DNA from: Pomacea canaliculata
Lineage: Eukaryota; Mollusca; Gastropoda; Architaenioglossa; Ampullariidae
DNA: 64,000 nt
Direction: 5' to 3'
Assembly (NCBI RefSeq): GCF_003073045.1
Contig: NC_037592.1
Location: 6,127,924-6,191,923, forward strand
The notes under the pieces were generated by a model that saw only the letters and a program-made list of their open reading frames with translations, was not told the origin of the DNA and did no database searches. Made by a program: the position numbers and the translations under genes. Below are positions 10,936-63,800 of this stretch, one piece after another (position 1 is the first letter of the stretch; the number at the start of each line of letters is the position of its first letter).

Positions 10936-11954
10936 CTCAACTTTTGAAGGAGACAGCCACAAGCTCACAATGTTCAAGCAAACGGATGATGGGTTAGAGC
11001 AGGATGTCAGCAGGTGTCCGCTTGTAAGCAGAACACAGGTGGCCGAATAACAACTCGGAACTTTATCAGACAAAGCGACAGACCTGAGGCAGCTGCTGAG
11101 TTCTGGCAGTGGACCCTTGTAGATGAGTTGCTGAGCGATGATGACATCACAAGGCTGTGATACAGAGGCAGAGTTGTCTGCATCCATTAAAACTGGCAGC
11201 AACACCGGAAGCTCAGTCTCTCACTTGCACGAGCCATACTGACAAAAATACAGAGCTGTGAGGGGAACATTCAACCTGGTGGATCGCAATGAAGATACAC
11301 CCATCGTGGTGGCTTGCCAGATTGTGACACACAAAGATGGTGAATGAGTTCTATCCCGACAGGCAGCTCATACGCAGGATGAAACACTTCCTGTTGTTCC
11401 TCTTTACAGACTTGAACTAACAACTGGAATGAGTGGAGAGACGAATTACATGCAAGAGCTAATTTAAAAAAAACTGTGTGCGACAACTACAAGACACAGC
11501 ACTACACAGCTGTCACAAACAGCTTCACCCACACTAGGTCGGCTGGCAGTCACGTTTCAACACGCACTTGTACGTTGAAATGTTTGTAACAGAACAACAA
11601 CGTGAACTCTCTAGACAGTGAGGGGCAGATGGCGCGTGTTACACAGAGTGCCGTGTATTTTGAGTATGACCATGTCCGTTCTCATTCTTTTTTCCGTTCA
11701 GCCCAAAGGGAGCAGACCATCAACCTACCAGAATGCTTCAGGTGACACCCGCTTTAACACGTGGCAGCAAAAAAACTCATAACGTGCTGAGATGGGAAGT
11801 TTCTGGCTACATCTCGGAGCTTAAAAAAAGTGATGGATTAATAGTTGAAAGCAGCGCTCAGTTCTACAACATTACTTGGCTTCTCTTTTCTGATGGACCT
11901 TTTCGTATTTTTTTTTAAAAATTCCCAAACAAATTTCATTCCCCCATTTTGTTT

Positions 11955-12012
<58 letters not shown>
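10936..12012 (+). pseudogene. Copy B, 5' fragment, noisy sequence up to the assembly gap
   Basis: The DNA can be aligned with the N-terminal part of the family: the block corresponding to LAAAPEVSLSLAR near 11190-11230, and the stretch CTACAAGACACAGCACTACA near 11485. No frame stays open for long, because one-base insertions and deletions occur every few tens of bases. It ends in a tract of 51 A at 11962-12012 directly against the N run. The even scatter of indels and the position at a gap suggest poor consensus quality more than ordinary gene decay. This 5' part is not simply a copy of D: it differs at many substitutions too. Confidence 0.6.
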
Positions 12013-12112
12013 NNNNNNNNNNNNNNNNNNNNNNNNNNNNNNNNNNNNNNNNNNNNNNNNNNNNNNNNNNNNNNNNNNNNNNNNNNNNNNNNNNNNNNNN
12101 NNNNNNNNNNNN
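12013..12112. other. Assembly gap of 100 N
   Basis: Exactly 100 N, a conventional placeholder for a gap of unknown length. Much of the middle of copy B is missing here, so the true distance may be several kilobases. Confidence 0.98.
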
Positions 12113-14000
12113 GACGTGTGTACTGTTTGTATATGTAACACTGGTCCAATCAATGTGCAGGTACAGCATAAACCAAACTCTCAGACAAGATGTAATGGGA
12201 ACCGCTGAGGGACGCCTGCTTCATGAGCAGGTGTCATCTTACGGAATTTGTAAGGCGAGCCACTGTGGCCAGACATAAACATTCTCGAGACAGAGATATG
12301 TAGGCGTAGGGCAGCCTCAGCTGAGCATTAATACAAATACTAAAAACATGTTTGTGGCCGGTATCACATCCTTTCAGCTGCGCTGAGAAATCTATAGTAG
12401 GGCAGCTGGGGAAACACTACAAATCCTAGACCTTATTTTTTTGGTAAGAATGGCAGACATCAACACAGTCGAAATCAAAACAACGAAACTGTTTTACAAG
12501 TAGCAGCTGGGAGAGATGATTGGGAAACTGTAGGAGTGCTCATTAAATTAGGAGCTGATTGGGAACTCACTTCCAGTGAAAAGAAGTCAGCTTTCAGTGC
12601 AGACATAAACATGCTCGACAGATATGGGCGCAGCCTGCTTCATAGAGTTGTGGGTCATCTCGACTCACGAGATAGTAGGCAGCTGAACAAACTTGAATTA
12701 ATTGTAAAACTCCTAACCTTTTTGGTAGAACATGGGGCAGACATCAACAGTCGAAACCAAAAACAACGAACTGTTTTAAAAATAGCAGCTGCGAGAGATG
12801 ACCTGGGAAACTGTAGGATGCTCATTCAATTAGGAGCTGATTGCTGAACTCACTCCAGTGCAAAAGAAGTCGGCTTTTAGAAACTTCATCTCTTTAGGTG
12901 GGAAAATGTCGACGAAGAAAAGGGTTTCGTTTTTGTTAAATTAATATCTCCAAACATCAATGTCTTTCCTGAAAGAATACAAATGTGATAAAAAGAAAAG
13001 TATTTGCATGATGTGTCTAGAAAGCCCCAACTGGCCTATGGCAAAGGCTCTGGTAGAATGTGGAGCTGACGTGTTTCAGCTGTACACACATCAGACTCTG
13101 TTAGACTTATGATGTCTGCCAGTCATTCATACAGTAAATACAACAGGCATGGATTCTGTCTTTTCTTGACTCAGTGAATTCAAAAGGGTTAGACATCAAC
13201 ACTAAACTTAGAAAATGGATCTGGAGTTACTCTTCCATTCAATGAGACTATCAAAAGCATTAGGACTGACAAAAAATTTATGAGTAGTTTTTATTAATTT
13301 TTCTTTGGAGAGGGGCGCTAATCCTCTGCTGTCAACTCTAGAGATGGACATTACTTCGAGAAGTAACAGAGTGGATAGCTACAGTATGATGACTGCTCTG
13401 ATGAAACTTATTTCCGTTGGGGTCAACAACACATCAGCCGAGATTTACTGAGGCATGTTACAGTCACAAAGTGTAACCGCACAGAATGCGTCACCCAACA
13501 GAAAGATGATCCGGACAAGAACATCTTTGCCCTCAAAGCTGTTGATCGAATCAGGTGCAAAGTTCAAACGCAGAGTTATTTCGTCTGAACACAGAATACC
13601 CGAGTAAAGCTGGCAGACAGGCAGACACTGATGACAATATTAGAGAGATTCTTGAGTGTTGAACATGGCCGCCAGTCAACCTCGCTCACTGCAAGTCACT
13701 GTGTCGTCTGATCTGTTTCTCACTGTCTTGGTGTGGGCCTGGAAGGCACGACAGACTAAATCATTTGCCTATTCCTCCTTTAATATAGAATTTCTTTCGT
13801 TTGATGACTTAGTTCACAGCTAAAGGAAAAACTGTCTGGGATGTGGGCCTGATAGCGGGACCGGACACACACTCAATAGCTGGCCATATTTATCCTCTAT
13901 TAAGGGAACTTGTTTAACGACATCTTCCTGAAGCTTTCTTCTGAAAATCTATAAAGATGCACTCGTTGAGTCGTCAATCGAATCCACTAGTGATGTATGA
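12113..14000 (+). pseudogene. Copy B, 3' fragment: ankyrin repeats and SOCS box, noisy and D-like
   Basis: From about 12270 this follows the 3' part of copy D closely (the region at 34270-35690), including the SOCS-box region near 13690-13800 and the end of the coding region. Single-base indels break it every few dozen bases. An ankyrin unit appears twice in a row, at about 12272-12597 and 12599-12850, which suggests two read ends laid side by side next to the gap. It is either a recent duplicate of D's 3' end or a false duplicate of the D locus built from uncorrected reads. Confidence 0.65.
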
Positions 14001-18142: not shown

Positions 18143-21100
18143 ATGGCCATGGATATCGATCCAGAGCCTTGGGAGTCTACTGACCATGTTTTAAGCCCGC
18201 AGAGACTTCACTTTGAAGAGACCTCACCGCTGAGTGCAAAGGCAACAGAACTTAAGGCAGCTGCTGCATGTGGCAACTGGAGTCTTGTCCACACTTGTTG
18301 AGTTCCAGCAGCATCACTAAGTGTGAAATAGAGCAGAAGCTGTCTTTTCCATACCCTGGCAGCAGCACCAGAAGTCAGTCTGCCATTTGCACAAGATATA
18401 CTGACGAAAATATTGATACACAAAATTGACATCAACATGGTAGACAAAAACAAAGACACAGCTATCGTGCTTGCTGCTAGATGTGACAACACAAAGATGG
18501 TGATAGAACTTTTATCCAGACAGGCAGCTTTACCACAGGATGAAACACATGTGTGTTCTTTCTTGCAGACTCTGACAAAAACTTGGAAACAAGAAGAGGC
18601 ATGCTATATGCATGTGCTTGTTGTAAAACTGTTGTGGGACAGACTAAAAGACAGAGCACTACATAGTTGTCAGAAACTACTTCATGGGACACTGGTCCAG
18701 CTGGCAGTGACATTTCATGTGTCTCTTGTGCGTGAAATGTTCTTAACAAAACTACAACTGAACACTCTGGACAGTGAGGGAATGGCTGTATTACACCGAT
18801 TGGCCATGTTTTGATAGCGATAACCATGTTCGTCTTGTTCACTTTCTAATCAACAAAGGGGGCAAACATCCACCTACAGAACACTACAGGGGACACAGCT
18901 CTGGCATGTTGCAGCAAAACAGAACAACTGGATGATGATGGGAGCTTTGTTAAGAAGACAGGCTACCACTGATGTAGCTGATTGCGATCAGCGCTCTGTG
19001 TTACACATTCTTGCTTCTCACACTGATCCTGAATGCTTTTCTAAGATTGACCAGATACTTACATTGTTGATTTGTAACAATAATGACCTCAACAAAAAAG
19101 ACGGTCATGGTAATACAGCCTTACATCTGGCAGCACTTGCTGGTAACGTAACATTTATGAAGAAATTATTAGATGGTGGTGCTTGTGCTGATTGGTGTTA
19201 ATGACAAAAACAAAAGACAGTGTTGCACATGATAGCTATGACCAAAAGCAACATCTTTTCAACGTTTGATTCATGCATGAGCATTCTCATGCTGATTTTA
19301 AAAAAGAGGGGCAGATGTTGACAAAGTAGATAGTGAGGGTAACTCAGCTGTGCACATTGCTGCCAAACATGAAAACTGGGTTCTGGTGAATTTTTTGTTG
19401 AAATACGTAGACAATACTACTCAGCTGACAGCGAAGGCTTCAACATTTTGCACAGATTTGCAATGAAGCCATTTTGCCAGGATGAATGTATTGTTTTACA
19501 AGCTGTCTCAGAAGGTTGCTGATATAAATGCAAGAAGTTGGACTGGTGATACAGCCATAGACCTAGCTGTTAAGGGTCAAAACTGGGGGCTTGTGAAGCT
19601 ATTAGTAGAAGGAGGTGCTGCGTGGTATGAAATAGATGATGAAGGATATGATGTACTTAAACAATTTGCAATGGCAGAAAATACACAAGATTTTTGCTTT
19701 CCCTTTTTTCTAGAAAAAAGCATTAACTATAACACCCAGTCTTTGGTTGGAGACAACAGCATTGCATCTGACATGCGAGATATGGTAAACGCTCTGAAGT
19801 TGAACGCATTGTAAAACATGTAGAAAACATTGATGAGGTAGATTCTGAGGGCTTGACAGTTATTCAGAGATTAGTTATGAAAGCAACTAATGTGAGTTCT
19901 AGGCACTATTTTTGATCCATCATCTTCTTGAACGTGGTGCTGATTATACTCGTTGCGATCCAAATGGTGACACTGTGCTGCACCTGGCTACCAGGAATGG
20001 CCACTGGAAGGTTGTCAAATGCTGGTGAGCTTGGAGTAAGGACAGACACGCTTGACAGTGAGGGATTTTCAATTCTTCACAGAGTAGCAGTAGCAGGCAA
20101 GGATTCTTACTCACAGAATATGATATTGAAAAAACTTTTACAGAGTGGGTGCATGCATGAAACAAAAGGATCTTCAGGGAACACACCTCTCCATCTTGCT
20201 GTCCAACATCAGAACTGGGCTGTGGCTAAAGAGCTCGTTCAGTGTGGGGCAGAAGTCAATGAACTTGATCTTGAAGGTACACCATCCTTCAGAGACTGGC
20301 ACAGATGAAAGATGCTTGCTTGTCGCTGGCTCAGCTTCTGCTCGAAAAAGGAGCTAGATGTGATATAGTATCATACCAGGGTGACACCATTTGTGATATA
20401 ATTGCTGACAGTGAAAACTGGAACATGAATAGAGTGTTTACTTAAGCACGGTAGTGCCTGCGTTTAAAGAATATGAAAACAAAATATCTTTTACACTGTT
20501 TGGCTTCTAGCTCCCATGGAGATATGCATACCGATGTCTGTGACCTCCTGATTGAGAAAGGATGGTCTGTTGATGCTGAAGATCATGATGGTAACACGCC
20601 ACTTCACCTCACAGCCAAGGCAGGTAACTGGAAATTGATGGAACACTTAATACAAAAAGGTGCAAGTGGTAGAACGTTAGACAGTTCAGGAATTTCTATA
20701 TTGCACAGATTTGTTACTGATGTGACTAGGGATGTGTTGGGTGATGAAGAGTACCAAGCTACTCTAAATCTGATCCTCTCATCTGGTGTCAAAGTAATGC
20801 AACAGATCCTCAGGGTAACACGGCATTACAAATTGCAGCAAAACGTAGACTGATTTACATTGTAGACTGTCTTATAGATAAAGCTGAAAATCCAAATGCT
20901 AAAGACAGTGATGGCTTTACTCTCTTGCTGAGATTATCACAGATGCCCTCTAAAAGTTGCTTTTCCCATTGTTATGACCTACAGAAGAAAGGTGTTGACA
21001 TCAACACCTGCACAACTAATGGGGAATCAGCTCTTCACCTTGCAGTCAAAAGCAACAACTGGCCCATGGTACATTTTCTGCTGAACAGAGGTGCACTGTT

Positions 21101-22830
21101 TAATGTGCAGGATTTGGAACAGATGTATACCATACATAGACTAATAAAATGTTCTACTTCGGCCTATTGTGGTAGTGATGAACTCAGATTGATGACACTG
21201 TTGACAGACATGGGACTCTCCATTGCTATGCCAGATTCCTGTGGAAGGACACCAGCAGAACTTGCATTCAAACATAAGAAATGGAAACTTTTGAAATACC
21301 TCTTAGAATTGGGAGCACAATTAAATCCCACTCCTAGTAAAGGAAACTCACTTTTCCATGAACTTGCTAAACTTGATTTCATCAAAAAGGAGGCAGCAGA
21401 AGTTACACATCTCATTGTTAACCATGTTTCAGGCATCAACCTAAAAAACAACGTTGGTGATACACCTGTCCATGTGGCTCTCAATGAAGACAACTGGGAC
21501 GTTGTAAAAGCCTTTGTGGAACATGGGGCTGACCCAAACATACTTGACAGGAAAGGACAGTGTCTCCTTCACAAATTTGTTACAAATCTTAATCAGAAAA
21601 TAGTGTTCCCCTTGTAAAGGCTCTAGTGAAGCATGGTGCAGAGATAAATTGGAGAGGACCCAATGGTAAGACCGCTTTGCAATTAGCAGCTAGTAACAGT
21701 GAGTGGAAAATGGTTGTAGCCCTCATTGAATTAGGTGCTGACTGCATACTCACTCCTAAGGAAAAGCTGTCAGCTCTTAGGAACCTTCATTGCCTGACAT
21801 GGAGAGATGAGAAAAAGCTGAAACTTTTCATTAATTGCATCACAAATAATGTCTCAGGATCTGACATCAATACTACATTAAAAAAAGAATTTAGAGGTTA
21901 TGAAAACCCTTTGCTGCAAAAATGTGTAGAGACGTGCAACTGGATGATGGCAAAGGCCTTGGTGGAATGTGGAGCAGAAGTAAGTCTGATTCTTGAAAAT
22001 AAAGCACTCTTGCAGCTAATCATGTCCAGACCTTTAACACAAGCCTGGACACCTTTTTTTGATTTGTTGATTTCTAAAGGCTTGACATCAACACCAGACT
22101 TGAGAATCATCCCCAGTTCTTTTTCAGTAAGGAAGTCATCAGAAGCTTAATTCATGAAAAAGACGTCTCCAGATGTTTGTTCTGTGCATGGCTCAAGAGG
22201 GAGCTAACCCTTTAATTGTCAACTGTAGGGGACAGACACTGCTCAGGAAAGTTACAGACTTCAATAGACGTGGTACGCTTAATGCTCTCATAAAACTCTC
22301 CCACGGGGGTGACAACTCATCAACCGAAGATTACAGAAGCCATTTTACAATCTGAGAGATCCTTATGTAACTATAATGTCTCACCAACAGAAAATGCAAT
22401 ACAAGACTATAATATTTGTGCCCTCAAAATGTTGATTGGATCTGGTGCAAGTTCAAATGCGAGTTATTTCGGCTGAACACAGAATATCAAATGATACTGG
22501 CTGACGAGGTAGATGCAAATGAGGAAGTTAGAGAGCTTCTGGAAGTCTTAGACCAGGCTGCCAGTCAACCTCGCTCACTCACATCACTGTGTCGTTTGAC
22601 TGTCTCTCATTTGCTTGGTTGTGGGCCTTGCAGGCCAGACAAAATCAAGCGCTTGGAAATCCTTCTTTATTGAAAGTCTTATCTCTTTTTCTGATTTAGT
22701 GTCAACAGAGGTTCTGTCACAAAAACATGAAGATGTTCATTCTGGTTTATCAGAAGACAGTAATGACTTCAGTAGCAACAGTGATTATAATGACAGTGGC
22801 GATGAAATAGATGGCATCATCATCATATGA
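18143..22830 (+). pseudogene. Copy C: ankyrin-repeat/SOCS-box gene, frame-interrupted and internally deleted
   Basis: Exon 2 begins at 18086 after an acceptor. The start at 18143 gives MAMDIDPEPWESTD, which aligns with the MSSTPMDCDQQPESS start of D. The usual blocks follow, with a SOCS box near 22575-22700 (SLTSLCRLTVSH) and an acidic tail rich in Asp and Ser. The frame breaks at least ten times; the first, near 18297, is a one-base loss relative to D. The Cullin-box part (LPIPP in D) is itself shifted. About 1.7 kb present in A and D is missing: near 20090-20130 the sequence passes from a unit matching D at 31060 to one matching D at 32860. This copy is clearly more divergent from D than A or F is, so it is probably an older, inactive member. 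Confidence 0.75.
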
Positions 22831-28631: not shown

Positions 28632-31600
28632 ATGTCCTCGACACCCATGGACTGCGATCAACAACCTGAGTCTTCAGGACTCGTTATCAGCCAGCGCATG
28701 TCTCACTCGGACACAAGCATGTCACTAATAAGTAAGACACTGGACTTAACAGCAGCTGCCGACTCTGGTAACTGGACTCTTCTCCACGATTGGCTGAGTT
28801 CCGATGACGTCACAAGATGTGATATAGAACAAAGCTACATACTCCATAGACTGGCAGCAGCACCGGAAGTCAGCCTCTCACTGGCACGAGATATTTTAAC
28901 AAAAATATTGAAACATAAAGTAGACATCAACATGGTGGATACAAACGGTGACACAGCTGTCGTGGTTGCTGCCAGATGTGACAACACAAAGATGGTGATG
29001 GAGCTTCTATCCCGACAGGCAGCTCTACCACCTGATGTAACACACGTGTGTTCTTTCTTGCAGACTCTGACTAACAACTGGAAACCACAAGAGACGCCTT
29101 ATATGCACGCGCTTGTTGTCAAACTGTTGTGGGACAGACTACAAGACACAGCACTACACAGCTGTCACAAACAGCTTCACCACACACTGGTCCGGCTGGC
29201 AGTCACGTTTCACACGTCACTTGTACGTGAAATGTTTGTAACAGAACAACAAGTGAACTCTGTAGACAGTGAGGGGATGGCCGTGTTACACAGAGTGGCC
29301 ATGTTTGATAGCGAGGACCATGTCCGTGTTGTGCTCTTTCTCATCAGCAAAGGTGCCAACGTTAATCTACAGACCACGACAGGTGACACACCTCTACATG
29401 TTGCTGCCAAGCACAAGAACTGGGCGATAATGGAGGTTTTGTTACACCGACAAGCCAAAAGTGATGTGGTTGATTGTGAACAGCGTTCAGTTTTACACAT
29501 CATGGCTTCTTATGCAGATCCTGAATGCTTCTCAGATATCAATGACATCCTTCCGTTGTTAATCCATAACAACAGCGACATCAACAAAAAGGACAGAGAA
29601 GGAAACACAGCCTTACACCTGGCAGCACTCGCCGGTAACATGGGGTTTGTGAAGACATTGTTACATCATGGTGCACGTGCTGATGTTGTTAACGACGAGC
29701 AGAAGACAGTGTTACACATCATGGCGATGTCGGGATGTACTAACCTTTTATCGCTCACCTTAAACAAAGGAGCAGACGTTCACAGGACCGATTGTTACGG
29801 TGACTTAGCTGTACATCTTGCTGCAAAACATAACAACTGGAATTTCGTGGAATTTCTTTTAAAGTATTTTAGCGACCTTTCTCATCCTGACAGTGAAGGA
29901 TTCAATATTTTCCACAGATTTGCGATACATCCATCTTACAGACACCTGCATTTGTTTTACCAATTGCCTCAGAAGGTTGGTGATATAAATTCAAGAAGTC
30001 GGATTGGCGATGCAGCGATACACTTGGCTGCTAAACATCAGAACTGGAACATAGTGAAACGTCTAGTACAAGAAGGCGCCATAATTGACGAACCAGACAG
30101 TGAAGGGTTTCTTGTATGTGACAGAATGGCAATGGGAGGAAATACACAAAACTTTGAATTCCATTTTTTTATGAAGTATGACTTAGACTGTACCAGTCGC
30201 TCTTTGACTGGAGAGACAGTGTTGCAAATCGCTGCCAAACATGGTGACTGGTCAATGGTCAAACGCCTAGTAGAGTACGTGGGAAATATAGACCAGGTAG
30301 ATTCCGAGGGTTTAACTCTAGTTCAAAGACTTATGACTAAAAAAGCTAAACTGCACACCTCAATATTCTACCGTCTTCTTGAGCTCGGCGTCAATCTCAC
30401 CTGTCGTGATGCAAACGGCGACACTGTGTTGCACCTGGCGGCTAGAAATGAACGTTGGGATATTGTCAACTATCTTGTGGAGCCTGACAGGGATGGTTTA
30501 TCAGCTTTTCACAGAGCAGCGACATCAGATACAAGAGGTGCTCGGAAGTACGTAGTAAATATAGACGAGACTGATTCCGAGGGTTTGACTCTCATTCAAA
30601 GACTTGCTATGAGCAAAGAAGGTAACTTCGGCACTTCACTATTACGTCGTCTCCTCGAGCTCGGCGCTGACTACACCTGTCGTGATGCAAACGGCGACAC
30701 AGTGCTGCACCTGGCGGCTAGAAATGACCACTGGAAGATTGTCAAGTACTTTGTGAATCCTGACAGCGAGAGTTCATCGGATCTTCACAAAGCAGAAACA
30801 GTGGATACAAGAGGTGCGCGAAAGTACGTAGTAAATATAGACGAGACTGATTCCGAGGGTTTGACTCTCATTCAAAGACTTGTTAATAGCAAAAAAGGTA
30901 AATTACATTTTTCACTATTACGTCGCCTCATTGAACTCGGCGCTGACTACACCTGTCGTGATGCAAACGGCGACACAGTGCTGCACCTGGCGGCTAGAAA
31001 TGACCACTGGAAGATTGTCAAGTACCTTGTGCAGCTTGGAGTAGGTACCGACTCACCTGACAGCGATGGTTTTTCAGTTCTTCATAGAGCAGCGACAGCA
31101 ATGGAAGAAACAGCAGGAGGTGTGCTTCTTTACATTCTAAAACGGAATCCCGACTTACACAAGCGAACACGACAGGGAGACACAGCCGTACATCTGGCCG
31201 CCAGACACAGACAATGGGACGCTGTTAAACTCTTAACAAAATACGGTGCAAACATTTTAGACAATGACAGCGAGAGCACAACTGTTCTACAGAGAATGAT
31301 TGCGTGTCCAGATTCAACTGGACAACAGATATGCATTCTTCGAAGTTTAGTGAAAACATGTTCAGTAGAACAGCTTAGCAAGTCATATGGATTACTTTTA
31401 TTTCAAGCCTGTAGACTAAATGTAGTCCGATTCCTGTTGGATCACGGGGTCAGTATACACCAACGCGACTCGGAAGGTCTTAGTCTTTTACATCATGTAG
31501 CGAAAACAAGAGAATGTTTATCGATCAAAATGACTCAGCATCTTCAATATTTTTTGGAAAAGGGCATTGGCTTGGAAGATAGATGTCCGAATGGCAACAC

Positions 31601-34600
31601 ACCTCTACACTTCGCTGCTAAATTTGATAACTGGGATATGGTAATATACTTAGTGGAGCGAGGGGCATGCATTCAAGACCCTGACAGTGACGGCGTCTAT
31701 GTGCTCCAGAGACTGGCCATGTACAGTGAGTATGGTGAGAAACACAGTGAACTTCTTCGACTTCTCATCACGAATGGTGCAGATGTGACAATACGTGACT
31801 GCAATGACAATTCTACTTTACACCTTAGCGCCAAAGGCAACAATTGGAGTTTTGTTCGTCAGATTATTCAAGAGACAGGTGACCTTAATATAGACGAGCT
31901 TGACAGTGATGGCTACAACATTCTGCACAGGTTAGCGCAATCTGAGCACTCAGAGTTGGTAGAGGATGTCTTGAACAGAGGATGTAATGTAGAGGCCTTG
32001 AGTAGAGATGGCGACACCTGTTTACTTCTAGCTGCAAAGCGCGACAACTGGACCTTTGTAAAGAGTGTACTGGGTCACGTGTTCAACAGAAAGCACTCGT
32101 CAGACCTACTGGTGTACGATCTTTCCTCATCAGAAAATGATTCTCACGGTTTTACACAACACGTTTATAGTATGAGTCAAATAAATCTTTATACGAGAGA
32201 CCTACGTGGATATACGGTCTGTCATCTTGCACTCATAAGAAAACGGTGGGACGTCCTATGCCAGCTGGCAGAATGTGGCTACAACATGGACATCATTGAT
32301 AACGAGGGACTCGATCTCCTGCAGAGAATGGCCTCAGATAATGTTTCTAATCCTGAAACTCGTCGAAACTGTGACAGATTGTTAGAATCCATGAAAAAAA
32401 ACAGGTTTATATTAACTCGAACAAATGGGCTTGGAAACACGCCATTTCAAACAGCCGCCAAGAATAAAAATATTCCAATGGTAGTCCGTCTTTATCACCT
32501 TTTTCATGGTGGTGAAGACTTCAGTTCCACTGACAGCGATGGACTGTCTCCTTTGTACAGACTTGTCGACATTCTAAATGAAACCAAAAGTCGGGAGGAG
32601 ATTGAAAGCATAATGGAAGATATTTTGATATCATGTAAGGCACCTGAAAAAATATCTTGTGATGGCAACTCGCCTCTTCATTTAGCGGCAAAGTGTAGTG
32701 ATTGGTCGACTGTCAAAATGTTGCTGCAGCACGGAGCACGAGCTGATGTGTGTGATCCTGAAGGTTTCACAGTTTTACACAGATTTGCTCAAGATAAGAC
32801 AGTTCTGATGAGATATTTTGGTCAGGGACCTATTTCTGTCACTAAAGGACTGTTTATTAAAGAACTTTTACAGAGAGGTGCAAGTCTACATCAAAAGAAT
32901 CTCGAAGGAAACACGCCCCTTCATCTTGCTGTCCTGTGTCACAACTGGGATGTAGCTACAGAGCTTGTTTACCTTGGGGCCGAGGTAAATGAACTCGACT
33001 CTGAAGGGTTCACAGTCCTCCAAAGACTGGCACAGGTACCAGATCCCAGCGATAGTGAGTCGTGTGTAAAACTCACTAAGCTACTGTTTGAGAGAGGAGC
33101 TCGGTGCGATATTCCGTCAAAGCGCGGTGAGACGATGATTGACATTGTAGTCGAAAATGAAAACTGGATCATGATGAAATGTTTACTTACTCATGAGATG
33201 CTTGCAATCAGAGAACACGATGACAAATTTCTTTTGCACCGTTTGGTTTTTAGCGACAGTGGAGCTCAACACACTGATGTCTGTGACCTTCTGATTGAGA
33301 AAGGATTGTCTGTGAATGCTGAAGATTGTGAAGGCAACACACCACTTCATGTCGCAGCTCGAGTAGGCAACTGGGACTTGGTAGAACACTTCATAAGAAA
33401 GGGTGGTAGCGGTAGAAAGCCAGATGGAAACGGCTTTTCCATCTTGCACAAATTTGTAACTTCTGTGAACATGTTTCATTCGGTCAGAGATAATAAGGCC
33501 ATGAAAGAGCACCTTCACACATTAGATGTCATCATTTCATCTGGGGTTGATGTAAACGCTACGGACCCCCGGGGTAACACAGCGATACATATCGCAGCAA
33601 AACGACAACTGGTTGGTATTGTAAAACGCCTGATAGACATCGTTGACAACCTCAACACCACAGACAGCGATGGCTTTACTGTGTTACTAAGACTGGCACA
33701 AACACCACACCCACAATGTCTCCCTGTTTTACGCCGTCTGGTACAGAAAGGTGCTGACATAAACTTCTGCTCGATACAAGGTGAATCAGCTCTTACACTT
33801 GCAGTTAAAAGCAACAACTGGCCTGTGGTACAATTTCTGGTCAGCAGGGGTGTACAGTATAGTGTACAGACTCTGGAGCAGCTTCACACTATTCACAGAC
33901 TGATAAAGACTACCTCTTCGACATTTCCCGAAGATAAGAAAGTGAAGCTGATGAAATTGCTAACAAACAGTGGATTGTCTATAAACTTGCTAGATCAGTG
34001 TGGAAAGACACCAGCAGAGCTGGCATTCATACATAAGAAATGGAAACTGCTGAGATATCTTTTGAAATCGAAAGCAGACATAAATCCCACTTCCACAAAA
34101 TTAGACTCATTTTTTCATGAACTTACTAAAATGGGTTCCGTTGACGATGATGTGAAAGATATTACACGACTCCTGGTTATGTCTGGCTTGGACATTAACC
34201 AACAAAATATCTTTGGTGATACTCCATTTCATGTGGCAGCTGAGAAAGCCAACTGGGACGCTGTTATAGTATTCGTAGAGCACGGTGCAGACATAAACAT
34301 TCTCGACAGATATGGGCGCAGCCTGCTTCATACAGTTGTGGGTCATCTCAGCTCGCGAGATAATAGGCAGCTGAACAAACAACAACTCCTAACCTTTTTG
34401 GTAGAACATGGGGCAGACATCAACAGGCGAAGTCAAGACAACAAAACTGTTTTACAAGTAGCAGCTGCGCGAAATGACTGGGAAACTGTAGGAGTGCTCA
34501 TTCAATTAGGAGCTGATTGGGAACTCACTCCCAGTAAAAAGAAGTCGGCTTTTAGAAAACTTCATCTCTTGAGCTGGGAAAATGTCGACGAAGAAAAGGT

Positions 34601-35690
34601 GTGTCGTTTTGTACATTATATCTCAAACGATGTTTGTGACATCAATGCATCTTTCCTGAAAGAATACAAATGTGATAAAAAGAAAAGTATTTTGCAGATG
34701 TGTATAGAAAAGTCCAACTGGCCTATGGCAAAGGCGTTGGTAGAATGTGGAGCTGACGTGTTTCAGCTGTACACACATCGGACTCTGTTAGAGTTTATGA
34801 TGTCTGCATATTCACAGAGTAATACAATAGCATGGATGTCTTTTCTTGACTCATTGATTTCAAAAGGGTTAGACATCAACACTAAACTTAGAAATGGATC
34901 TGGAGTACTCTTCCATTATGAGACTATCAAAAGCATTAGGACTGACGACACATTTATGAGTAGTTTATTTAATTTGCTGTTGGGGAGGGGTGCAAATCCT
35001 CTGCTTGTCAACTCTAGACGATGGACATTACTTCGAGAAGTAGCAGAGTTGGATAACTACAGTATGATGACTGCTCTGATGAAACTTCTTCCCGCTGGGG
35101 TAACAACACATCAGCCGAGATTTACTGAGGCCATGTTACAGTCACAAAAAGTTTCCACCGCACAGACTGCGTCCCCAACAGAAAAGATGATCCGGGACAA
35201 GAACATCTTTGCCCTCAAGCTGTTGATCGAATCAGGTGCAAGTTCAAACGCAGAGTTATTTCGTCTGAACACAGAATACCAAGTGAAGCTGGCAGGACAG
35301 GCAGACACTGATGCCAAAGTTAGAGAGCTGCTTGAGGTGTTGAACATGGCCGCCAGTCAACCTCGCTCACTGCAGTCACTGTGTCGTCTGACTGTTTCTC
35401 ACTGTCTTGGTTGTGGGCCTGGAAGGCACGACAGACTAAATCATTTGCCTATTCCTCCTGTAATTATAGAATTTCTTTCGTTTGATGACTTAGTTTCACA
35501 GCTAAAGAAAAAAGCTATGGGGGATGTGGGCCTGATAGGACAGACAGACTCAATAGCTGGCCTATTTATCCTCTATGAAGGGAACTTGTTTAACGACATT
35601 CTTCCCGAAGCTTTTCTTCCGACGATCCATAAAGATGACTCGTCGAGTTCGTCAATCGAATCCACTGACAGTGATGATGAACATTATTAG
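28632..35690 (+). CDS. Copy D: intact giant ankyrin-repeat SOCS-box (ASB-like) protein, 2352 aa
   Basis: One uninterrupted coding exon. After a Ser/Thr-rich N-terminus (1-30) come a degenerate first ankyrin unit and a conserved N-terminal block (about 95-200) with a non-ankyrin helical insert. From about 200 to 2140 there is a long solenoid built from a two-part unit: a canonical repeat GDTxLHLAAxxxNWxxVxxLV, then a degenerate one DSEGFxVLHRxA...LLxxGADV. I count roughly 25 units of the first kind, so about 50 ankyrin repeats in all. Residues 2246-2289 form a SOCS box: SLQSLCRLTV fits the BC-box pattern (S/T)LxxxCxxx(V/L/I) that binds Elongin C, and LPIPP fits the Cullin-5 box. An acidic tail ends DDSSSSSIESTDSDDEHY. 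The likely role, from knowledge of ASB proteins, is substrate recognition for a Cullin-5 ubiquitin ligase; the substrate is unknown. ASB proteins usually have 300-650 residues, so this is unusually large. There is no signal peptide or membrane segment. Confidence 0.93.
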   Translation: MSSTPMDCDQQPESSGLVISQRMSHSDTSMSLISKTLDLTAAADSGNWTLLHDWLSSDDVTRCDIEQSYILHRLAAAPEVSLSLARDILTKILKHKVDINMVDTNGDTAVVVAARCDNTKMVMELLSRQAALPPDVTHVCSFLQTLTNNWKPQETPYMHALVVKLLWDRLQDTALHSCHKQLHHTLVRLAVTFHTSLVREMFVTEQQVNSVDSEGMAVLHRVAMFDSEDHVRVVLFLISKGANVNLQTTTGDTPLHVAAKHKNWAIMEVLLHRQAKSDVVDCEQRSVLHIMASYADPECFSDINDILPLLIHNNSDINKKDREGNTALHLAALAGNMGFVKTLLHHGARADVVNDEQKTVLHIMAMSGCTNLLSLTLNKGADVHRTDCYGDLAVHLAAKHNNWNFVEFLLKYFSDLSHPDSEGFNIFHRFAIHPSYRHLHLFYQLPQKVGDINSRSRIGDAAIHLAAKHQNWNIVKRLVQEGAIIDEPDSEGFLVCDRMAMGGNTQNFEFHFFMKYDLDCTSRSLTGETVLQIAAKHGDWSMVKRLVEYVGNIDQVDSEGLTLVQRLMTKKAKLHTSIFYRLLELGVNLTCRDANGDTVLHLAARNERWDIVNYLVEPDRDGLSAFHRAATSDTRGARKYVVNIDETDSEGLTLIQRLAMSKEGNFGTSLLRRLLELGADYTCRDANGDTVLHLAARNDHWKIVKYFVNPDSESSSDLHKAETVDTRGARKYVVNIDETDSEGLTLIQRLVNSKKGKLHFSLLRRLIELGADYTCRDANGDTVLHLAARNDHWKIVKYLVQLGVGTDSPDSDGFSVLHRAATAMEETAGGVLLYILKRNPDLHKRTRQGDTAVHLAARHRQWDAVKLLTKYGANILDNDSESTTVLQRMIACPDSTGQQICILRSLVKTCSVEQLSKSYGLLLFQACRLNVVRFLLDHGVSIHQRDSEGLSLLHHVAKTRECLSIKMTQHLQYFLEKGIGLEDRCPNGNTPLHFAAKFDNWDMVIYLVERGACIQDPDSDGVYVLQRLAMYSEYGEKHSELLRLLITNGADVTIRDCNDNSTLHLSAKGNNWSFVRQIIQETGDLNIDELDSDGYNILHRLAQSEHSELVEDVLNRGCNVEALSRDGDTCLLLAAKRDNWTFVKSVLGHVFNRKHSSDLLVYDLSSSENDSHGFTQHVYSMSQINLYTRDLRGYTVCHLALIRKRWDVLCQLAECGYNMDIIDNEGLDLLQRMASDNVSNPETRRNCDRLLESMKKNRFILTRTNGLGNTPFQTAAKNKNIPMVVRLYHLFHGGEDFSSTDSDGLSPLYRLVDILNETKSREEIESIMEDILISCKAPEKISCDGNSPLHLAAKCSDWSTVKMLLQHGARADVCDPEGFTVLHRFAQDKTVLMRYFGQGPISVTKGLFIKELLQRGASLHQKNLEGNTPLHLAVLCHNWDVATELVYLGAEVNELDSEGFTVLQRLAQVPDPSDSESCVKLTKLLFERGARCDIPSKRGETMIDIVVENENWIMMKCLLTHEMLAIREHDDKFLLHRLVFSDSGAQHTDVCDLLIEKGLSVNAEDCEGNTPLHVAARVGNWDLVEHFIRKGGSGRKPDGNGFSILHKFVTSVNMFHSVRDNKAMKEHLHTLDVIISSGVDVNATDPRGNTAIHIAAKRQLVGIVKRLIDIVDNLNTTDSDGFTVLLRLAQTPHPQCLPVLRRLVQKGADINFCSIQGESALTLAVKSNNWPVVQFLVSRGVQYSVQTLEQLHTIHRLIKTTSSTFPEDKKVKLMKLLTNSGLSINLLDQCGKTPAELAFIHKKWKLLRYLLKSKADINPTSTKLDSFFHELTKMGSVDDDVKDITRLLVMSGLDINQQNIFGDTPFHVAAEKANWDAVIVFVEHGADINILDRYGRSLLHTVVGHLSSRDNRQLNKQQLLTFLVEHGADINRRSQDNKTVLQVAAARNDWETVGVLIQLGADWELTPSKKKSAFRKLHLLSWENVDEEKVCRFVHYISNDVCDINASFLKEYKCDKKKSILQMCIEKSNWPMAKALVECGADVFQLYTHRTLLEFMMSAYSQSNTIAWMSFLDSLISKGLDINTKLRNGSGVLFHYETIKSIRTDDTFMSSLFNLLLGRGANPLLVNSRRWTLLREVAELDNYSMMTALMKLLPAGVTTHQPRFTEAMLQSQKVSTAQTASPTEKMIRDKNIFALKLLIESGASSNAELFRLNTEYQVKLAGQADTDAKVRELLEVLNMAASQPRSLQSLCRLTVSHCLGCGPGRHDRLNHLPIPPVIIEFLSFDDLVSQLKKKAMGDVGLIGQTDSIAGLFILYEGNLFNDILPEAFLPTIHKDDSSSSSIESTDSDDEHY
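30300..31100 (+). repeat. Triplicated 92-residue module inside copy D
   Basis: DSEGLTL(V/I)QRL begins at 30300, 30573 and 30849, giving periods of 273 and 276 bp. Each module continues through LTCRDANGDTVLHLAAR or YTCRDANGDTVLHLAAR; the second and third are joined to what precedes them by DTRGARKYVVNIDETDSEG. Copies A, E and F carry this module only once. The second and third modules are almost identical in DNA, so the last expansion was recent. Confidence 0.9.
35367..35498 (+). other. SOCS box of copy D (BC box plus Cullin box)
   Basis: Residues 2246-2289. The BC box is SLQSLCRLTVSHCLG with Leu, Cys and Val at the Elongin C contact positions; then comes RLNHLPIPPVIIEFLSF, matching the LPxP core of Cullin-5 boxes. 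The same segment is recognisable in A (about 7533-7690), B (about 13690-13800), C (about 22575-22700) and E (48623-48754, SLKSLCRLTVSH then LSIPP). Conservation in every 3' end suggests it matters for function. Confidence 0.88.
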
Positions 35691-40370: not shown

Positions 40371-40439
40371 TATTTTGGAAAAGTCGGCGATGTATCGCCG
40401 ATAATATCTATGAGCCCTAGCAGTGATCTCACTTGCTTC

Positions 40440-44946: not shown

Positions 44947-45097
44947 TGTCATGAACGCTCTTTTATAAAATCTCTTTCTCACTCTCTCAACACGCACGCG
45001 TTCCCTTGCGTATTCTTTCAAACATAAAGCACAAAGATTTGTCGTGGAAATAAAAATAACTTTAAATCAATCCAACATCAACTAAATATATACATAT
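44947..45097 (-). repeat. 5' LTR part of the Gmr1-like element
   Basis: About 150 bp ending TGACA in element sense just before the primer-binding site. It shows no match to the 3' LTR part, so the two probably represent different portions of one LTR. The outer border is where homology to the ankyrin genes resumes, near 45097. Confidence 0.5.
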
Positions 45098-48000
45098 AGT
45101 CGATATTAATACGAGATGTAGGACAGGTGATACAGCAATACACCTGGCTGCTAAATATCAGAAATGGCAAATCGTAAAGCTGTTTGTAGAAGAAGGTATA
45201 ATAACAGACGAACTAGACAGTGAAGGCTTTTGTATTCTTCACAGGTTGGCTATGGAAAATAAGATTGATGACACTTTGCTCAGTTCCTTTTTGGAGATCA
45301 GCATTAATCCTCGTTCTTTGTCTGGAGACACAGTGTTGCACATGGCCGCAAAACACGAAAAATGGCAGCTGGTAAGGCGCCTAGTAGAGCTCGTAGAAAA
45401 CATAGACGAGAGAGATTCTGAGGACTTGACTGTCATCCAAAGACTCGTTGTGTCTAAGGATGAAGCTCGGTTGCATAGAGAATTATTCTCTCGCCTCATT
45501 GAACTCGGCGCTGACTACACCTGTCGAGATCAAAACGGCGACACTGTGTTACACCTGGCGGCTAGAAATGGCCACTGGGAGATTGTCAAGTACCTTGTGC
45601 AGCTTGGAGAACCAACAGACACGCCAGACAGCGAGGGTTTTGTAATTCTTCACAGAGCAGTAACAGCAGACACTGGAGATTCTTGTGCGCAAGACATGCT
45701 TTGTTCCATTCTAAAAAGTAATCCTGAATTGAGCAAACGAACAAAACATGGCGAAATGGCCATACATCTAGCAGCTAGATATGAACGATGGGAAACTGTC
45801 GTGATCTTGCTAGAGCATGGGGCAAATGTTTTTGATTGCGACAGTGAGAATGTCAGTGTTCTTCAACAAATAATTAAGTGTCAGTCTTCCTTTCCCCTTG
45901 CATTGCCCATTCTTCAACGAACAGTCGTAATACATACAGCAGAACATCATTACAATTTATACAATACACTTGTATGTGAAGCAGCAAAATGTAGTAAATG
46001 GGATCTTCTACAATACTTAATAGATGTTTGCGGGGTCAATATAGGCAAACTTGCTTTAGATGGCTTGAGTTTGCTACACATCGTAGCCCAAACTAAGTTT
46101 ACACAGTACCCTCATCAAATTATCAGTGAACTTGTCAAACGTCTTCTGAATAAAGGCATGAAATTGGAAGACAGATGTCCAAATGGAAACACACCACTGC
46201 ACTTAGCAGCTAAATCTGACAACTGGGATTTAGTCAAGTATTTAGTGGAGCAAGGGGCGAACATTCAAAGCCCCGACAGTGAGGGCCTCCTTGTGCTCCA
46301 GCGACTGGCCATGTCCAGCAGTTATGGTGAGAATCAGCGGGAATTCCTAAGACTTCTCATCAAAAAAGGAGCTGATGTCAAAGTGCGTGACTCCAACGGA
46401 AACTCTCTGCTTCATCTTGGTGGCAAAGCGAACAACTGGTCCTTTGTTTTACATATCATACAAGAGTCTACTGACCTTCAACCAGAAGAGCTTGACAATG
46501 ATGGCTTCAACTTGTTGCATAGGTTGGCACTGTTTGACAAGCTTTAATCTGGAAATGTTATGTGGTAATGGCGACACTTGTTTGCTTCTGGCTGCAAAGC
46601 GAGAAAACTGGGTAGTTGTGAAATGTAACTGGTATTTAGTGGAGCACCTGATACAAAGAGGTGCAATAGACAAAACAATAGACAGAAAAGGTATGTCTAT
46701 ATTGCACAGATTTGTCAATGATATTAAAAGTGACCGACAGTTTCACAGAGTAGATCCCTACACAAAAACTCTTTCCGATGTACGTGATGCCATTATCTCT
46801 TCTGGTGTCGATGTAAACATTACAGACCACCAGGGTAACACAGCTTTACACATTGCAGCAATGCGCAGACAGTTTTACATAGTGAGGGATCTCATAGACA
46901 TCGTTGACAACCTCAACACCAGAGACAGTGAAGGGTTCACTGTATTACTGAGACTGTCACAAATAGCTAGACCACGATGGCTCCAAGTTTGTCAGCATCT
47001 TGTTGAGAAAGGTGCGGATATCAATATTTGCACCAAAGATGGGGAATCAGCTCTTGAACTTGCAGTCAAGAACACAACTGGCCTCTGGTAGAGGTTCTGT
47101 TGAGCAAAGGTGTCTTGTTTGATGTGCAAAATATCGAAAAAACATTTTCCCTTGCACAGATTAATAAAATCTTCACCATCAACAATTGCTACTGACATTC
47201 AACTGGAATTGATGACATTGTTAACAAATATTGGACTTTCTGTAAATATGCCGGATCCCGATGGAGATTTGCCTGCAAAACTGGCATTCAGACATAAAAA
47301 ATGGAATCTTTTGACTCATCTCTTAAACTCAGGAGCACATCAGAATCCGACATTTACAAAACGAAACTCATATCTTCACGAGCTTGCTAAAAACTCCTCC
47401 GCTGAAGGTGAGGCGGCGAATATTACGCCTACTTCTAATTAACCGTGGTATGGACATTAACCTGCTAAACGGTGTTGGGGATACACCTGTCCATGTCGCA
47501 GCTGATGAAGGCAACTTGACCATTGTAAAAATTTTTGTGGAACACGGCGCTGACACAAACATACCTGATAGGAAGGGGTGTTTTTTACTTTATAAAGTTA
47601 TTAATAAACTCGTTAATGAGGATTGGGGGATGCTGTCCACCTGTGAAATAACAGAACTCTTAAGGACTTTAGTAAATCACGGAGCAGACGTCAACTGCCG
47701 AGGACCAGACAACAAGACTGCCTTACAAGCAGCGGCTGGCAAAGACAACTGGGAAACGGTCGGGACACTCATTCAGTTAGGAGGTGTCTGTGAACTCACT
47801 CCGGATGAAAAGCTGTCGGCATTAACACTTCTTCATCTCTGTATTTCGAAAGATGTCGACGACGAAAAGATTAAGGTGTTTATCAAGTACATCACAAATG
47901 ATGGTTCGAACATAAACAATTCTTTCCAAGAAAAAAACAGATGTGGGGATCAAAAAACTTTTTTGCAGAACTGTATAGAGAAATCCAACTGGAGGATGGC

Positions 48001-48775
48001 AAAGGCATTGGTAGAATGCGGGGCACACCTCAGTCAGAAGGACACAAACGAGCCAATACTACAAATTATGGTTTCCAGATATTCAGAGAGGGATCACTCA
48101 TCATGGGTCTCCTTTCTTGACTATTTAATTTCAAGAGGGCTCGACATTAAAAGCAAGCTTCGAGAAGGGTCTGGAATACTTTTCCACGACAAGATTGTCT
48201 CAAGCTTAACTTGTAAAGAGAAGGTTACCGAATGCTTGTTTGATACATTACTGGAAAGAGGAGCCGATCCTCTGGTCGTCGACTCCAAGGGACAAACATT
48301 ACTCAGGAAAGTTTTAGACTTCGGCGAAAAGCCTGCTCTGAATGCTCTGAAAAAACTTCTTCCAATTGGAGTGACGACCCATCAACCAAAATTTACAGAG
48401 ACGATCGTACAGTCCCATGGAGGTTCATCTAAACAAACTGTTTCGCCAATGGAAAAGGTGATAGAGGATCGGAACATTTCCGCTCTCAAGATGTTAATCA
48501 AATCAGGGGCAAGCTCAAATGCTGAGTTATTTCGCTTGAATACAGAATACCAAGTGAAGATGGGTAGATGGGCGAACAAAGAGCTTCTTGAAGTTTTGAA
48601 CATGGCCACAAGGCAACCTCAGTCACTAAAATCACTGTGTCGTCTGACTGTTTCTCACTGGGTTGGTTGTGGGCCTGGCAGGAGGGACAGACTCAATCGT
48701 TTGTCTATTCCCCCTGCACTAAGACAACTCGTCTCGTTTAATGATTTACTTTCCGAAGATTTTCTTTCACAATAG
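45098..48775 (+). pseudogene. Copy E: 5'-truncated ankyrin-repeat/SOCS-box gene
   Basis: Homology starts inside an ankyrin unit matching D near 29980, so about 450 N-terminal residues, exon 1 and the promoter are absent; the LTR element lies there instead. The frame is open at 45098-46547, then shifts at a small deletion (F has about 16 extra bases here), with further shifts near 47085 and 47440. At about 46622 NWVVVK is followed at once by CNWYLVEHL: some 1.3 kb found in D (32064-33371) is missing, in frame but out of register with the ankyrin unit. The SOCS box is present (SLKSLCRLTVSH, LSIPP). The protein then stops at FLSQ, and the acidic tail is reduced to a remnant after the stop. Without a promoter it is very probably dead. 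Confidence 0.8.
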
Positions 48776-60826: not shown

Positions 60827-63800
60827 ATGTCCTCGACACCCATGGACTGCAATCCACAACCTGAGTCTTCAGGACTTGTCATCAGCCCGCGCATGTCTCA
60901 CTCGGACACAAGCATGTCACTAATAAGTAAGACACTGGACTTAACAGCAGCCGCCGAGTCTGGTAACTGGACTCTTCTCGACGATTGGCTGAGCTCCGAT
61001 GACGTCACGAGATGTGATGTAGAACAAAGCTACATACTCCACAGACTGGCAGCAGCACCGGAAGTCAGTCTCTCGCTTGCACGAGATATTTTAACGAAAA
61101 TATTGAAACATAAAGTAGACATCAACATGGTGGATACAAACGGTGACACAGCTGTCGTGGTGGCTGCCAGATGTGACAACACAAAGATGGTGATGGAGCT
61201 TCTATCCCGACAGGCAGCTCTACCACCTGATGTAACACACGTGTGTTCTTTCTTGCAGACTCTGACTAACAACTGGAAACCACAAGAGACGCCTTATATG
61301 CACGCGCTTGTTGTCAAACTGTTGTGGGACAGACTACAAGACACAGCACTACACAGCTGTCACAAACAGCTTCACCACACACTGGTCCGGCTGGCAGTCA
61401 CGTTTCACACGTCACTTGTACGTGAAATGTTTGTAACAGAACAACAAGTGAACACTGTAGACAGTGAGGGGATGGCCGTGTTACACAGGTTAGCCATGTT
61501 TGATAGCGATGACCATGTCCGTGTTGTGCTCTTTCTCATCAGCAAAGGTGCCAACGTTAATCTACAGACCACGACAGGTGACACACCTCTACATGTTGCT
61601 GCCAAACACAAGAGCTGGGCGATAATGGAGGTTTTGTTACACCGACAAGCCAAAAGTGATGTGGTTGATTGTGAACAACGTTCAGTTTTACACAAAATGG
61701 CTTCTTATGCTAACCCTAAATGCTTCTCAGAAGTCAATGACATCCTTCCGTTGTTATTCCATAACAACACCGACATCAACAAAAGGGACAGAGAAGGAAA
61801 CACAGCCTTACACCTGGCAGCACTCGCCGGTAACATGGGGTTTGTGAAGACATTGTTACATCATGGTGCTCGTGCTGATGGTGTTAATGGCGAAAACAAA
61901 ACAGTGCTACACATGATGGCGATCAGTAGAAGTAAACATCTTTTGAGTAATGACTCATGTAGGAACATTTTGTCACTCATATTAAACAAAGGAGCAGATG
62001 TTCACAGGACCGATTGTTACGGGCACTTAGCTGTACATCTTGCTGCAAAACATAACAAATGGGACTTTGTAGAATTTCTGTCCAGATATTTAAGCGACCT
62101 TTCTCATCCTGACCGTGAAGGATTCAATATCTTGCACAGATTTGCGATACAATCATCCTCCAAACAGCTTCATTTGTTTTACCAGCTGTGTCACAAGGTT
62201 GGTGATATAAATGCAAGAAGTAGAAGCGGTGACGCAGCGGTACACCTGGCTGCTAAATATCAGAACTGGGACACACTGCAGATGCTGGTCCAACAGGGCG
62301 CACTAATCAACGAACCAGACAGTGAAGGTTGTTGCCTTTTTCAGATATTAGCTAAGGCAGGAAAAATAGAGAAATTGGCTTTCTGTTTGCTTAGGGAAGA
62401 GCAGGAATTGTACTGTAACAGTCGTTTTTTGTATAAAGCCAGAAAACTCACTACCGAACAGGTTTGGTCAGTTATCGTAAAGTACATGGGAAATATAAAC
62501 CAGGTAGATTCTGAGGGTTTGACTCTCGTTCAAAGACTTGTTATGAGCAAAGAAGGTCAACTCCACACTTATATATTCTGTCGCCTTCTTGAGCTCGGCG
62601 CTGACGTCACCTGTCGTGACGCAAACGGCGACACTGTGTGTCATCTGGCGGCTAGAAATGGCCACTGGGAGATTGTCCGATACCTTTTGGAGCTTGGAGA
62701 AGGAACGGACAACCTAGACAGCGATGGTTTGTCAGTTCTTCATAGAGCAGCAAAAGCAAATACAGAAATAGCACGAGATGTGCTTTCCTACATTCTACAA
62801 CGGAATCCTGACTTACACAAGCGAACAAGACAGGGAGACACAGCCGTACATGTGGCCGCCAGATGCCAACAATGGGAGACTGTCAAGACCTTAACTAAAC
62901 TCGGGGCAAACATTTTTGACTACGATAGTCAAAACACAAGCGTTCTGCAGAGAATGATTAGATGTCCCTCTTCAATCAGAATCGAGCTATCAATTCTACA
63001 AAATTCAACCGCAACATACACAGCTCAACAGTTGACCAACTCACTTTTGTTAAAAGCAGCGCAAGTCTGTAGACTGAATGTAGTTCGATTTCTGTTGGAT
63101 CAAGGGGTTAGTATACACCAACGTGACTCGGAAGGTCTTAGTCTTTTACATCACATAGCGAAAACAAGAGAATATTTCTCGATCGACATGACTGAACATC
63201 TTGAATACTTTCTGGATAAGGGCATTTGCTTGGAAGATAAATGTCCGAATGGCAACACACCTCTACACTTGGCTGCTAAGTCTGATAACTGGGATTTGGT
63301 CAATTATTTAGTGGAGCAAGGAGCAAGCATTCAAGACCCTGACAGTGAGGGCTTCTTTGTTCTCCAGCGACTGGCCATGTCCAGCAGTTATGATGAGAAT
63401 CAGCGGGAATTCCTAAGACTTGTCATCAAAAAAGGAGCTGATGTCAAAGCGCGTGACTCCAACGGAAACTCTCTGCTTCATCTTGGTGGCAAAGCGAACA
63501 ACTGGTCATTTGTTTTACATATCATACAAGAGTCTAATAACCTAGAACCAGAAGAGCTTGACAATGATGGCTTCAACTTGTTGCATAGGTTAGCACTGTT
63601 TGACGAGTGCTCAAATTGGATGGAGAAACTTTTGAACAAAAACTTTAATTTATGTGGTAATGGCGACACTTGTTTGCTTCTGGCTGCATATTTTCTGGAT
63701 AAGGGCATTGGCTTGGAAGATAAATGTCCGAATGGCAACACACCTCTACACTTGGCTGCTAAATCTGATCATTGGGGTTTAGTCAATTATTTAGTGAAGC

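What the first reader, a model, noticed from the sequence alone, without database searches (positions are those of the whole stretch)
28632..35690. A giant ASB-like protein: about 50 ankyrin repeats with a C-terminal SOCS box
Seen: 2352 residues of ankyrin repeats, then SLQSLCRLTV and LPIPP at residues 2246-2289. Known: these match the Elongin C-binding BC box and the Cullin-5 box of ASB proteins, which are ubiquitin-ligase substrate receptors of roughly 300-650 residues. Inferred: this is a substrate receptor with a solenoid several times longer than known ASBs, able to hold large or multiple partners. I know of no described ASB of this size.
Basis: partly seen in the sequence, partly recalled or inferred. 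Interest (0 to 1): 0.85.

Follow-up and report, generated by a model that had tools for sequence, protein, structure and literature searches.

The report
Giant ankyrin ubiquitin-ligase receptors in snail
A snail gene read as one uninterrupted frame encodes a 2352-residue protein of about 50 ankyrin repeats with a genuine SOCS box near its end, the docking piece of certain ubiquitin ligases, and it belongs to a large tandem family of such giants, far longer than the ASB proteins it resembles.

Summary
Window 28632-35690 is one intact frame of 2352 codons, filled with ankyrin repeats (Pfam Ank_2, E 3.7e-164) and carrying a SOCS box (residues 2243-2282, E 2.4e-9) with a BC box and an LPIPP Cullin box. 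The genome matches the Pomacea canaliculata (golden apple snail) assembly. The gene is not alone: in the first SOCS search 14 of 95 matches lie in frames of at least 1000 aa, all 14 in clusters on two chromosomes; the other 55 matches, outside the family's places, lie in frames of at most 585 aa. A second search adds one giant; four exceed 2000 aa. dN/dS against three paralogues is 0.30-0.58, so the protein is constrained. The solenoid alternates canonical and degenerate repeats. Of 47 family boxes, 45 keep the BC box and 25 a strict LPxP. A Cullin-5 exon is present.

Most likely mechanism: a CRL5 substrate receptor with an extreme solenoid. Elongin/Cullin binding, substrate and expression are inferred. 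Three SOCS helices are predicted, at low confidence. Ten open-access literature searches listed no description of giant ASBs. Verdict: a real new variant of a known kind.

The parts
28632..35690 (+). giant ankyrin-SOCS gene, single open frame, 2352 aa plus stop
   Evidence: Pfam
28632..28946 (+). N-terminal stretch (residues 1-105) before the first canonical repeat; residues 1-233 are shared by paralogues on two chromosomes
   Evidence: 69 matches, all on C3 and C7; the best 38 have E <= 1.6e-14
28947..35279 (+). ankyrin solenoid (residues about 106-2216): about 27 units of one canonical plus one degenerate repeat
   Evidence: Foldseek of the second half to AnkB E 6.6e-22 (local; TM-score 0.22)
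30332..30883 (+). internal tandem duplication, two copies of 276 nt (92 aa), 82% identical
   Evidence: families D1-D3
35361..35486 (+). SOCS box, residues 2244-2285
   Evidence: Pfam PF07525; family profile to ASB7 E 1.6e-8
35367..35396 (+). BC box SLQSLCRLTV (residues 2246-2255), Elongin C-binding motif by comparison (consensus recalled)
   Evidence: consensus met in 45 of 47 family boxes
35445..35459 (+). Cullin box LPIPP (residues 2272-2276)
   Evidence: strict LPxP in 25 of 47 family boxes
35487..35687 (+). 67-residue tail, acidic at its end; about 40 residues longer than in the nearest paralogue
35522..35591 (+). second copy of the Cullin-box coding stretch, 113 nt downstream of the first, read in another frame
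   Evidence: family D4
60827..64000 (+). second giant paralogue, first 1058 codons; runs on past the window (2285 aa in all, 80% identical over 2098 residues)
   Evidence: L009
1358..7834 (+). paralogue broken into several frames
11059..13991 (+). remains of a paralogue with many stops, around a masked stretch
   Evidence: matches at C3:6138982 and C3:6141097 with stops inside
18146..22688 (+). paralogue broken into short frames, ending in a SOCS-box fragment
45066..48772 (+). paralogue broken into at least four frames; the last keeps a SOCS box

Best explanation
The gene encodes a giant member of the ASB kind: an ankyrin solenoid that binds one large, or several, partner proteins, tethered by a C-terminal SOCS box to Elongin B/C and Cullin-5/RBX2, so that bound partners are ubiquitylated. 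Shown here: the frame, the repeats, the SOCS box with both sub-motifs, constraint on the protein, and the clustered family. Inferred: Elongin B/C and CUL5 binding, ligase activity, and the identity of partners. The family grew largely by local gene duplication, and the solenoid at least once by duplication of a whole repeat pair.
For: SOCS_box E 2.4e-9 in the gene and in 20 of 20 aligned boxes. The family profile finds ASB7 E 1.6e-8, ASB9 2.1e-4 and ASB8 1.5e-3 as its best solved matches. BC box in 45 of 47 family boxes; its first 12 residues are 9-12 of 12 identical in all 12 paralogues compared, while the rest of eight of them is only 32-35% identical. dN/dS 0.58, 0.42 and 0.30 against L009, L011 and L012 over 2098, 2055 and 1565 residues; the eight other paralogues are too far for dS. 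Buried-type positions of the canonical repeat change least. About 30 chance stops would be expected per 0.1 neutral change per site. A Cullin-5 exon lies at C6:14.99 Mb (PDB E 4.9e-27, against 1.9e-6 for Cullin-1). The solenoid model matches solved ankyrin stacks.
Against: The SOCS fold is not confidently predicted (pLDDT mostly under 50-60; the short C-terminal model has 188 Foldseek matches with E <= 10 and none with E <= 0.001). Strict LPxP is missing in 22 of 47 family boxes, including three of the four paralogues above 2000 aa. In the four near paralogues the SOCS box is not more constrained than the repeats (pN/pS 0.62-0.82 against 0.40-0.63). dN/dS is fairly high for two recent pairs (0.58 and 0.66). 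An Elongin C gene was not found: the Skp1_POZ search matched one place only, whose second exon is SKP1. No expression data.
Confidence: 0.66

Rival explanations
1. The giant binds Elongin B/C through its BC box but no longer works well as a Cullin-5 ligase; the solenoid acts as a scaffold or trap, and Elongin B/C merely stabilises it.
For: The BC half of the box is nearly invariant while the Cullin half drifts (strict LPxP in 25 of 47 family boxes; LNIC, LNIP and a shortened LLPS in the other three giants above 2000 aa). A solenoid of about 50 repeats would place many sites far from the E2 (inference).
Against: This gene keeps LPIPP. Human ASB9 also lacks a strict LPxP (its aligned stretch reads LVLPED) although it forms a complex with CUL5 (PMC4403949 passages).
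Confidence: 0.2
2. The frame is a decaying or unexpressed duplicate in a pseudogene-rich cluster.
For: At least three broken copies lie in the same window. dN/dS against the nearest copy is a fairly high 0.58.
Against: 2352 codons are open; about 30 stops would be expected per 0.1 neutral change per site. dN/dS is 0.30 and 0.42 against L012 and L011, and buried-type repeat positions are the most constrained. Eleven family frames of 1500 aa or more are open.
Confidence: 0.08
3. The family entered the snail genome from a bacterium, symbiont or virus, which would explain why its long members lack introns.
For: The 15 longest members are each one open frame. A laterally acquired ankyrin gene set is described in the wasp Nasonia (PMC6161386, title and start of abstract seen in the listing).
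Against: The SOCS box is closest to animal ASB7. The viral contig scan found no relative; the prokaryote scan gave one 13-residue match, about the length of the search word. Both scans used one short pattern and so reach close relatives only.
Confidence: 0.05

Closest known systems
ASB proteins (ankyrin repeat and SOCS box; 18 in humans, PMC4403949 passages), nearest solved SOCS box ASB7
   Same: ankyrin repeats followed by a SOCS box, BC box plus Cullin box, and the helix and linker before the box
   Different: about 50 repeats against 4-11 for the five ASBs tabulated in PMC2942773 (passages); 2352 aa; one uninterrupted frame; alternating repeat pairs; a tail after the box; clustered family
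Long ankyrin solenoids: ankyrin-1/2 (24 repeats), NOMPC, TRPA1
   Same: same repeat fold; best matches by sequence and by model
   Different: spectrin-binding, death or channel domains (recalled) in place of a SOCS box; about half as many repeats
Poxvirus ankyrin/F-box proteins, and the ankyrin protein MGF505-1R of African swine fever virus
   Same: ankyrin array plus a cullin-ligase adaptor element (titles and starts of abstracts of PMC3185573, PMC4353913 and PMC13342108 in the listing; not read further)
   Different: viral; poxvirus proteins go with cullin-1; far shorter (recalled)

Membership tests
[quoted passage not shown]
[quoted passage not shown]
   PF07525 E 2.4e-9, above cut-off; 20 of 20 aligned family boxes
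[quoted passage not shown]
   SLQSLCRLTV; 45 of 47 family boxes
[quoted passage not shown]
   LPIPP in this gene; only 25 of 47 family boxes have strict LPxP
[quoted passage not shown]
   three helices at the right places but low pLDDT; no significant fold match
[quoted passage not shown] substrate ubiquitylation | not testable with these tools
   needs protein; CUL5 exon present in the genome, Elongin C not located
[quoted passage not shown]
   ASB7 is merely the best solved match; no animal proteomes available

The most novel reading that the evidence does not exclude
The apple snail holds a fast-turnover repertoire of giant CRL5 receptors, about 40 loci with many broken copies, in which solenoids lengthen by whole repeat pairs and exchange segments. 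They would act as a germline-diversified system that captures and ubiquitylates large multivalent targets such as filaments, aggregates or intracellular invaders.
Probability: 0.2. Interest if true: 0.85.

Novelty: new variant of a known kind. Interest (0 to 1): 0.62.

Why it matters
Known ASBs are compact adaptors that place a substrate near the E2. A receptor with about 50 repeats, in a family with 15 SOCS-ended frames of at least 1000 aa, asks how a cullin ligase works with a solenoid that should make about two superhelical turns (inference from ankyrin, about one turn per 24 repeats, recalled), and why a snail multiplied it. It provides natural series (1000-2350 aa, with and without a strict Cullin box) to test the reach of a CRL5 receptor.

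Tried and rejected
Coral/amphioxus and tunicate origin were probed through the GFP and GH6 families: no matches, and both answers say that absence is not shown. Contig lengths and the mitochondrial contig then settled the organism.

Positive selection on the solenoid: no overall signal; pN/pS is below 1 in the repeats of all four pairs compared. The tail gives 2.81 against L009, but over 29 codons and across an indel.

The 1452-aa open frame reported at C7:7661707 was not counted as a giant, because in the fetched DNA the SOCS box lies in a 158-aa frame.

NCBIfam matches to bacterial ankyrin effectors are all far below their cut-offs; one short unrelated model passes its cut-off through repeats. 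Latrotoxin and other rows likewise reflect ankyrin repeats only.

The short C-terminal model was too uncertain to be useful in a fold search. An alignment of N-terminal halves (A2) was made but not folded.

On re-checking, my first box count had dropped six rows as duplicates, one of which (L017) is a different place with an identical box; one search recounts by genomic place, and the numbers above are those.

Full report
OBSERVATION. The frame at 28632-35690(+) is intact, 2352 aa (about 264 kDa), with stops just upstream in the same frame, and is one uninterrupted frame as far as sequence can tell. Pfam sees ankyrin repeats and one SOCS box, residues 2243-2282, E 2.4e-9, above the curated cut-off; a 66-residue piece scanned alone scores E 7.2e-12.

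ORGANISM. The genome (440,159,624 bases, 24 contigs) has 14 contigs of 19-45 Mb and a 15,707-base contig C24. C24 reads in code 5 as a mitochondrion with COX2, ATP6, ND1, ND6, CYTB, tRNA-Ser, ND4L, ND4, ND5, COX3, ND3 and ND2 on one strand (gene names are my reading), which I recall as the caenogastropod order. The Pomacea canaliculata genome paper (PMC6129957, passages) reports 440 Mb, 14 chromosomes, longest scaffold 45.4 Mb, scaffold N50 31,531,291 (exactly the length of C6) and a mitochondrial contig of 15,707 bp. Two figures do not fit: it gives the shortest chromosome as 27.2 Mb (here 19.4 Mb) and 440,071,717 bases in all. I still take the window as this assembly. Another paper gives 16,965 bp for the P. 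canaliculata mitochondrion (PMC6274680, passages).

FAMILY. A SOCS_box search of the genome gave 95 matches at E <= 0.001, a lower bound. Of these, 40 lie in the family's places: 19 on C3 at 4.33-4.38 and 5.97-6.26 Mb, 20 on C7, one on C2 (recount). All 14 open frames of at least 1000 aa are among the 40; the longest frame of the other 55 is 585 aa. A search with residues 2074-2352 gave 60 matches and adds a frame of 2263 aa. That makes 15 SOCS-ended frames of at least 1000 aa, 11 of at least 1500 and four above 2000 (2356, 2289, 2263, 2182); these are stop-to-stop lengths. Several shorter family members are split between two frames. A search with residues 1-233 gave 69 matches (150 of 266 candidates scored), all on C3 and C7, 38 of them with E <= 1.6e-14. 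A tree of 33 C-terminal regions (from the 50 rows: frames of at least 200 aa in a hand-made list of places) separates the 15 C7 rows from the C3 rows plus one C2 row at 100/99 support. The 4.3 Mb cluster is one clade; the 6 Mb C3 cluster needs 2 changes, and the two C7 groups 4 and 3. So most growth was local, with some movement. The window itself holds at least three broken copies.

ARCHITECTURE OF THE SOLENOID. A repeat profile trained on the family finds 35 repeat-like stretches in the protein, 28 with positive score. Canonical repeats (consensus GDTALHLAAKHKNWDIVEHLLERGA) recur every 66-92 residues in 22 of 24 intervals; the other two are double. Between them lies a second, degenerate repeat (such as DSEGFTVLHRLA...LLRRLLELGAD, my reading). 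The AlphaFold2 model of residues 1173-2352 (10 window sequences, mean pLDDT 65.6, pTM 0.43, best blocks 88-93 in the middle, under 50 for 287 of 1180 residues) shows about 27 helix pairs before the SOCS box (my count). Foldseek ranks AnkB first (E 6.6e-22), though with a TM-score of only 0.22: the repeats match locally, the overall curve does not. The N-terminal half was not modelled. The whole thus has about 50-54 repeats. A 276-nt, 92-residue tandem duplication inside the gene (82% identical) shows one way it lengthens.

CONSTRAINT. Against L009, L011 and L012 dN/dS is 0.58, 0.42 and 0.30; eight further paralogues are saturated at synonymous sites. Among other pairs it is 0.31-0.42 in five of six and 0.66 in L017/L018, a recent pair. 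Against L009, L050, L011 and L012, pN/pS is 0.40-0.52 in canonical repeats and 0.43-0.63 in degenerate repeats with linkers, and buried-type positions of the canonical repeat change least. At 0.1 neutral change per site about 30 stop codons would be expected. The genes are coding. pS along the window/L009 pair runs from 0.06 to 0.46, leaving out one 27-nt block, which suggests segment exchange between copies.

THE SOCS BOX ACROSS THE FAMILY. In the fetched DNA 56 boxes or box fragments were found, which are 51 different places. Of the 51, 49 match the BC-box consensus and 28 have LP-hydrophobic-P. Without four boxes from ordinary genes (L001, L002, L007, L008) this is 45 and 25 of 47, fragments included; the two without a BC box are broken pieces. 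A 20-row profile finds ASB7 (E 1.6e-8), ASB9, ASB8, SOCS2 and SOCS4, and nothing else up to E 1. For eight distant paralogues the box is 48-57% identical against 32-35% for the rest. For the four near ones (L009, L011, L012, L050) it is 0.75 vs 0.80, 0.71 vs 0.58, 0.60 vs 0.57 and 0.59 vs 0.55: no clear excess, because the Cullin half varies. In this gene the Cullin-box stretch is present twice, 113 nt apart. Compared with L009, 113 nt are extra and 5 are missing, a net 108, so the frame is kept; the first copy is read in frame as LPIPP and the second, which aligns to L009's LNIC, is read in another frame. That fits the finding that 54 of 60 matches end by residue 2294; the other six are the gene itself, three matches full of stops, and two weak ones. 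Many relatives carry a D/E-rich tail after the box.

STRUCTURE OF THE BOX. Both models put helices where a SOCS box has them (residues 2244-2258, 2276-2281 and 2284 to 2295 or 2297), but mostly with pLDDT under 50-60. The short model has 188 Foldseek matches with E <= 10 and none with E <= 0.001. SOCS boxes need Elongin B/C for stability (PMC4403949 passages), and a complex could not be modelled here. Sequence says SOCS box clearly; structure is undecided.

PATHWAY. The Cullin search gave 36 matches at five places. An exon at C6:14.99 Mb is Cullin-5; exons at two other places are Cullin-3 and Cullin-4; the remaining two were not typed. The Skp1_POZ search found one place, whose second exon is SKP1. 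Elongin C was not located, which an exon-wise search does not turn into absence. Elongin B and RBX2 were not sought.

LITERATURE. Ten searches showed, in the rows listed (often 20 of many), no paper on giant ASBs or on an ankyrin-SOCS expansion in snails; 'ankyrin repeat and SOCS' with 'gastropod' gave 0 papers. Two genome papers, PMC6129957 and PMC13336756, hold neither 'ankyrin' nor 'SOCS' in the main text. The library is open-access only, so this does not show absence from print.

CONCLUSION. A genuine ASB-type protein at a scale not described in what I could search, and one of a family. Function as a CRL5 substrate receptor is the best reading (0.66); a scaffold with Elongin B/C but weak Cullin-5 use is the main rival (0.2).

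Noticed in passing
window 39852-44353 (-): Pieces of a retroelement (zinc knuckle, reverse transcriptase, RNase H by Pfam) between the giant gene and the next paralogue; the frames are broken up.
   Followed up: partly
window 35409-35478 and 35522-35591: Partial duplication of the SOCS box with a compensating small deletion leaves one Cullin box in frame and one out of frame.
   Followed up: yes
window 28632-29531 against L009 (C3:6188750 onward): The first 300 codons are nearly identical between neighbouring giants (pS 0.065-0.11) while codons 442-583 differ strongly (pS 0.46): possible gene conversion.
   Followed up: partly
L019, L021, L022, L051, L059-L063 C-termini: Aspartate/glutamate-rich runs after the SOCS box in many C7 paralogues.
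   Followed up: no
window about 11.9-12.1 kb: A run of about 100 masked bases (N) beside a long homopolymer.
   Followed up: no
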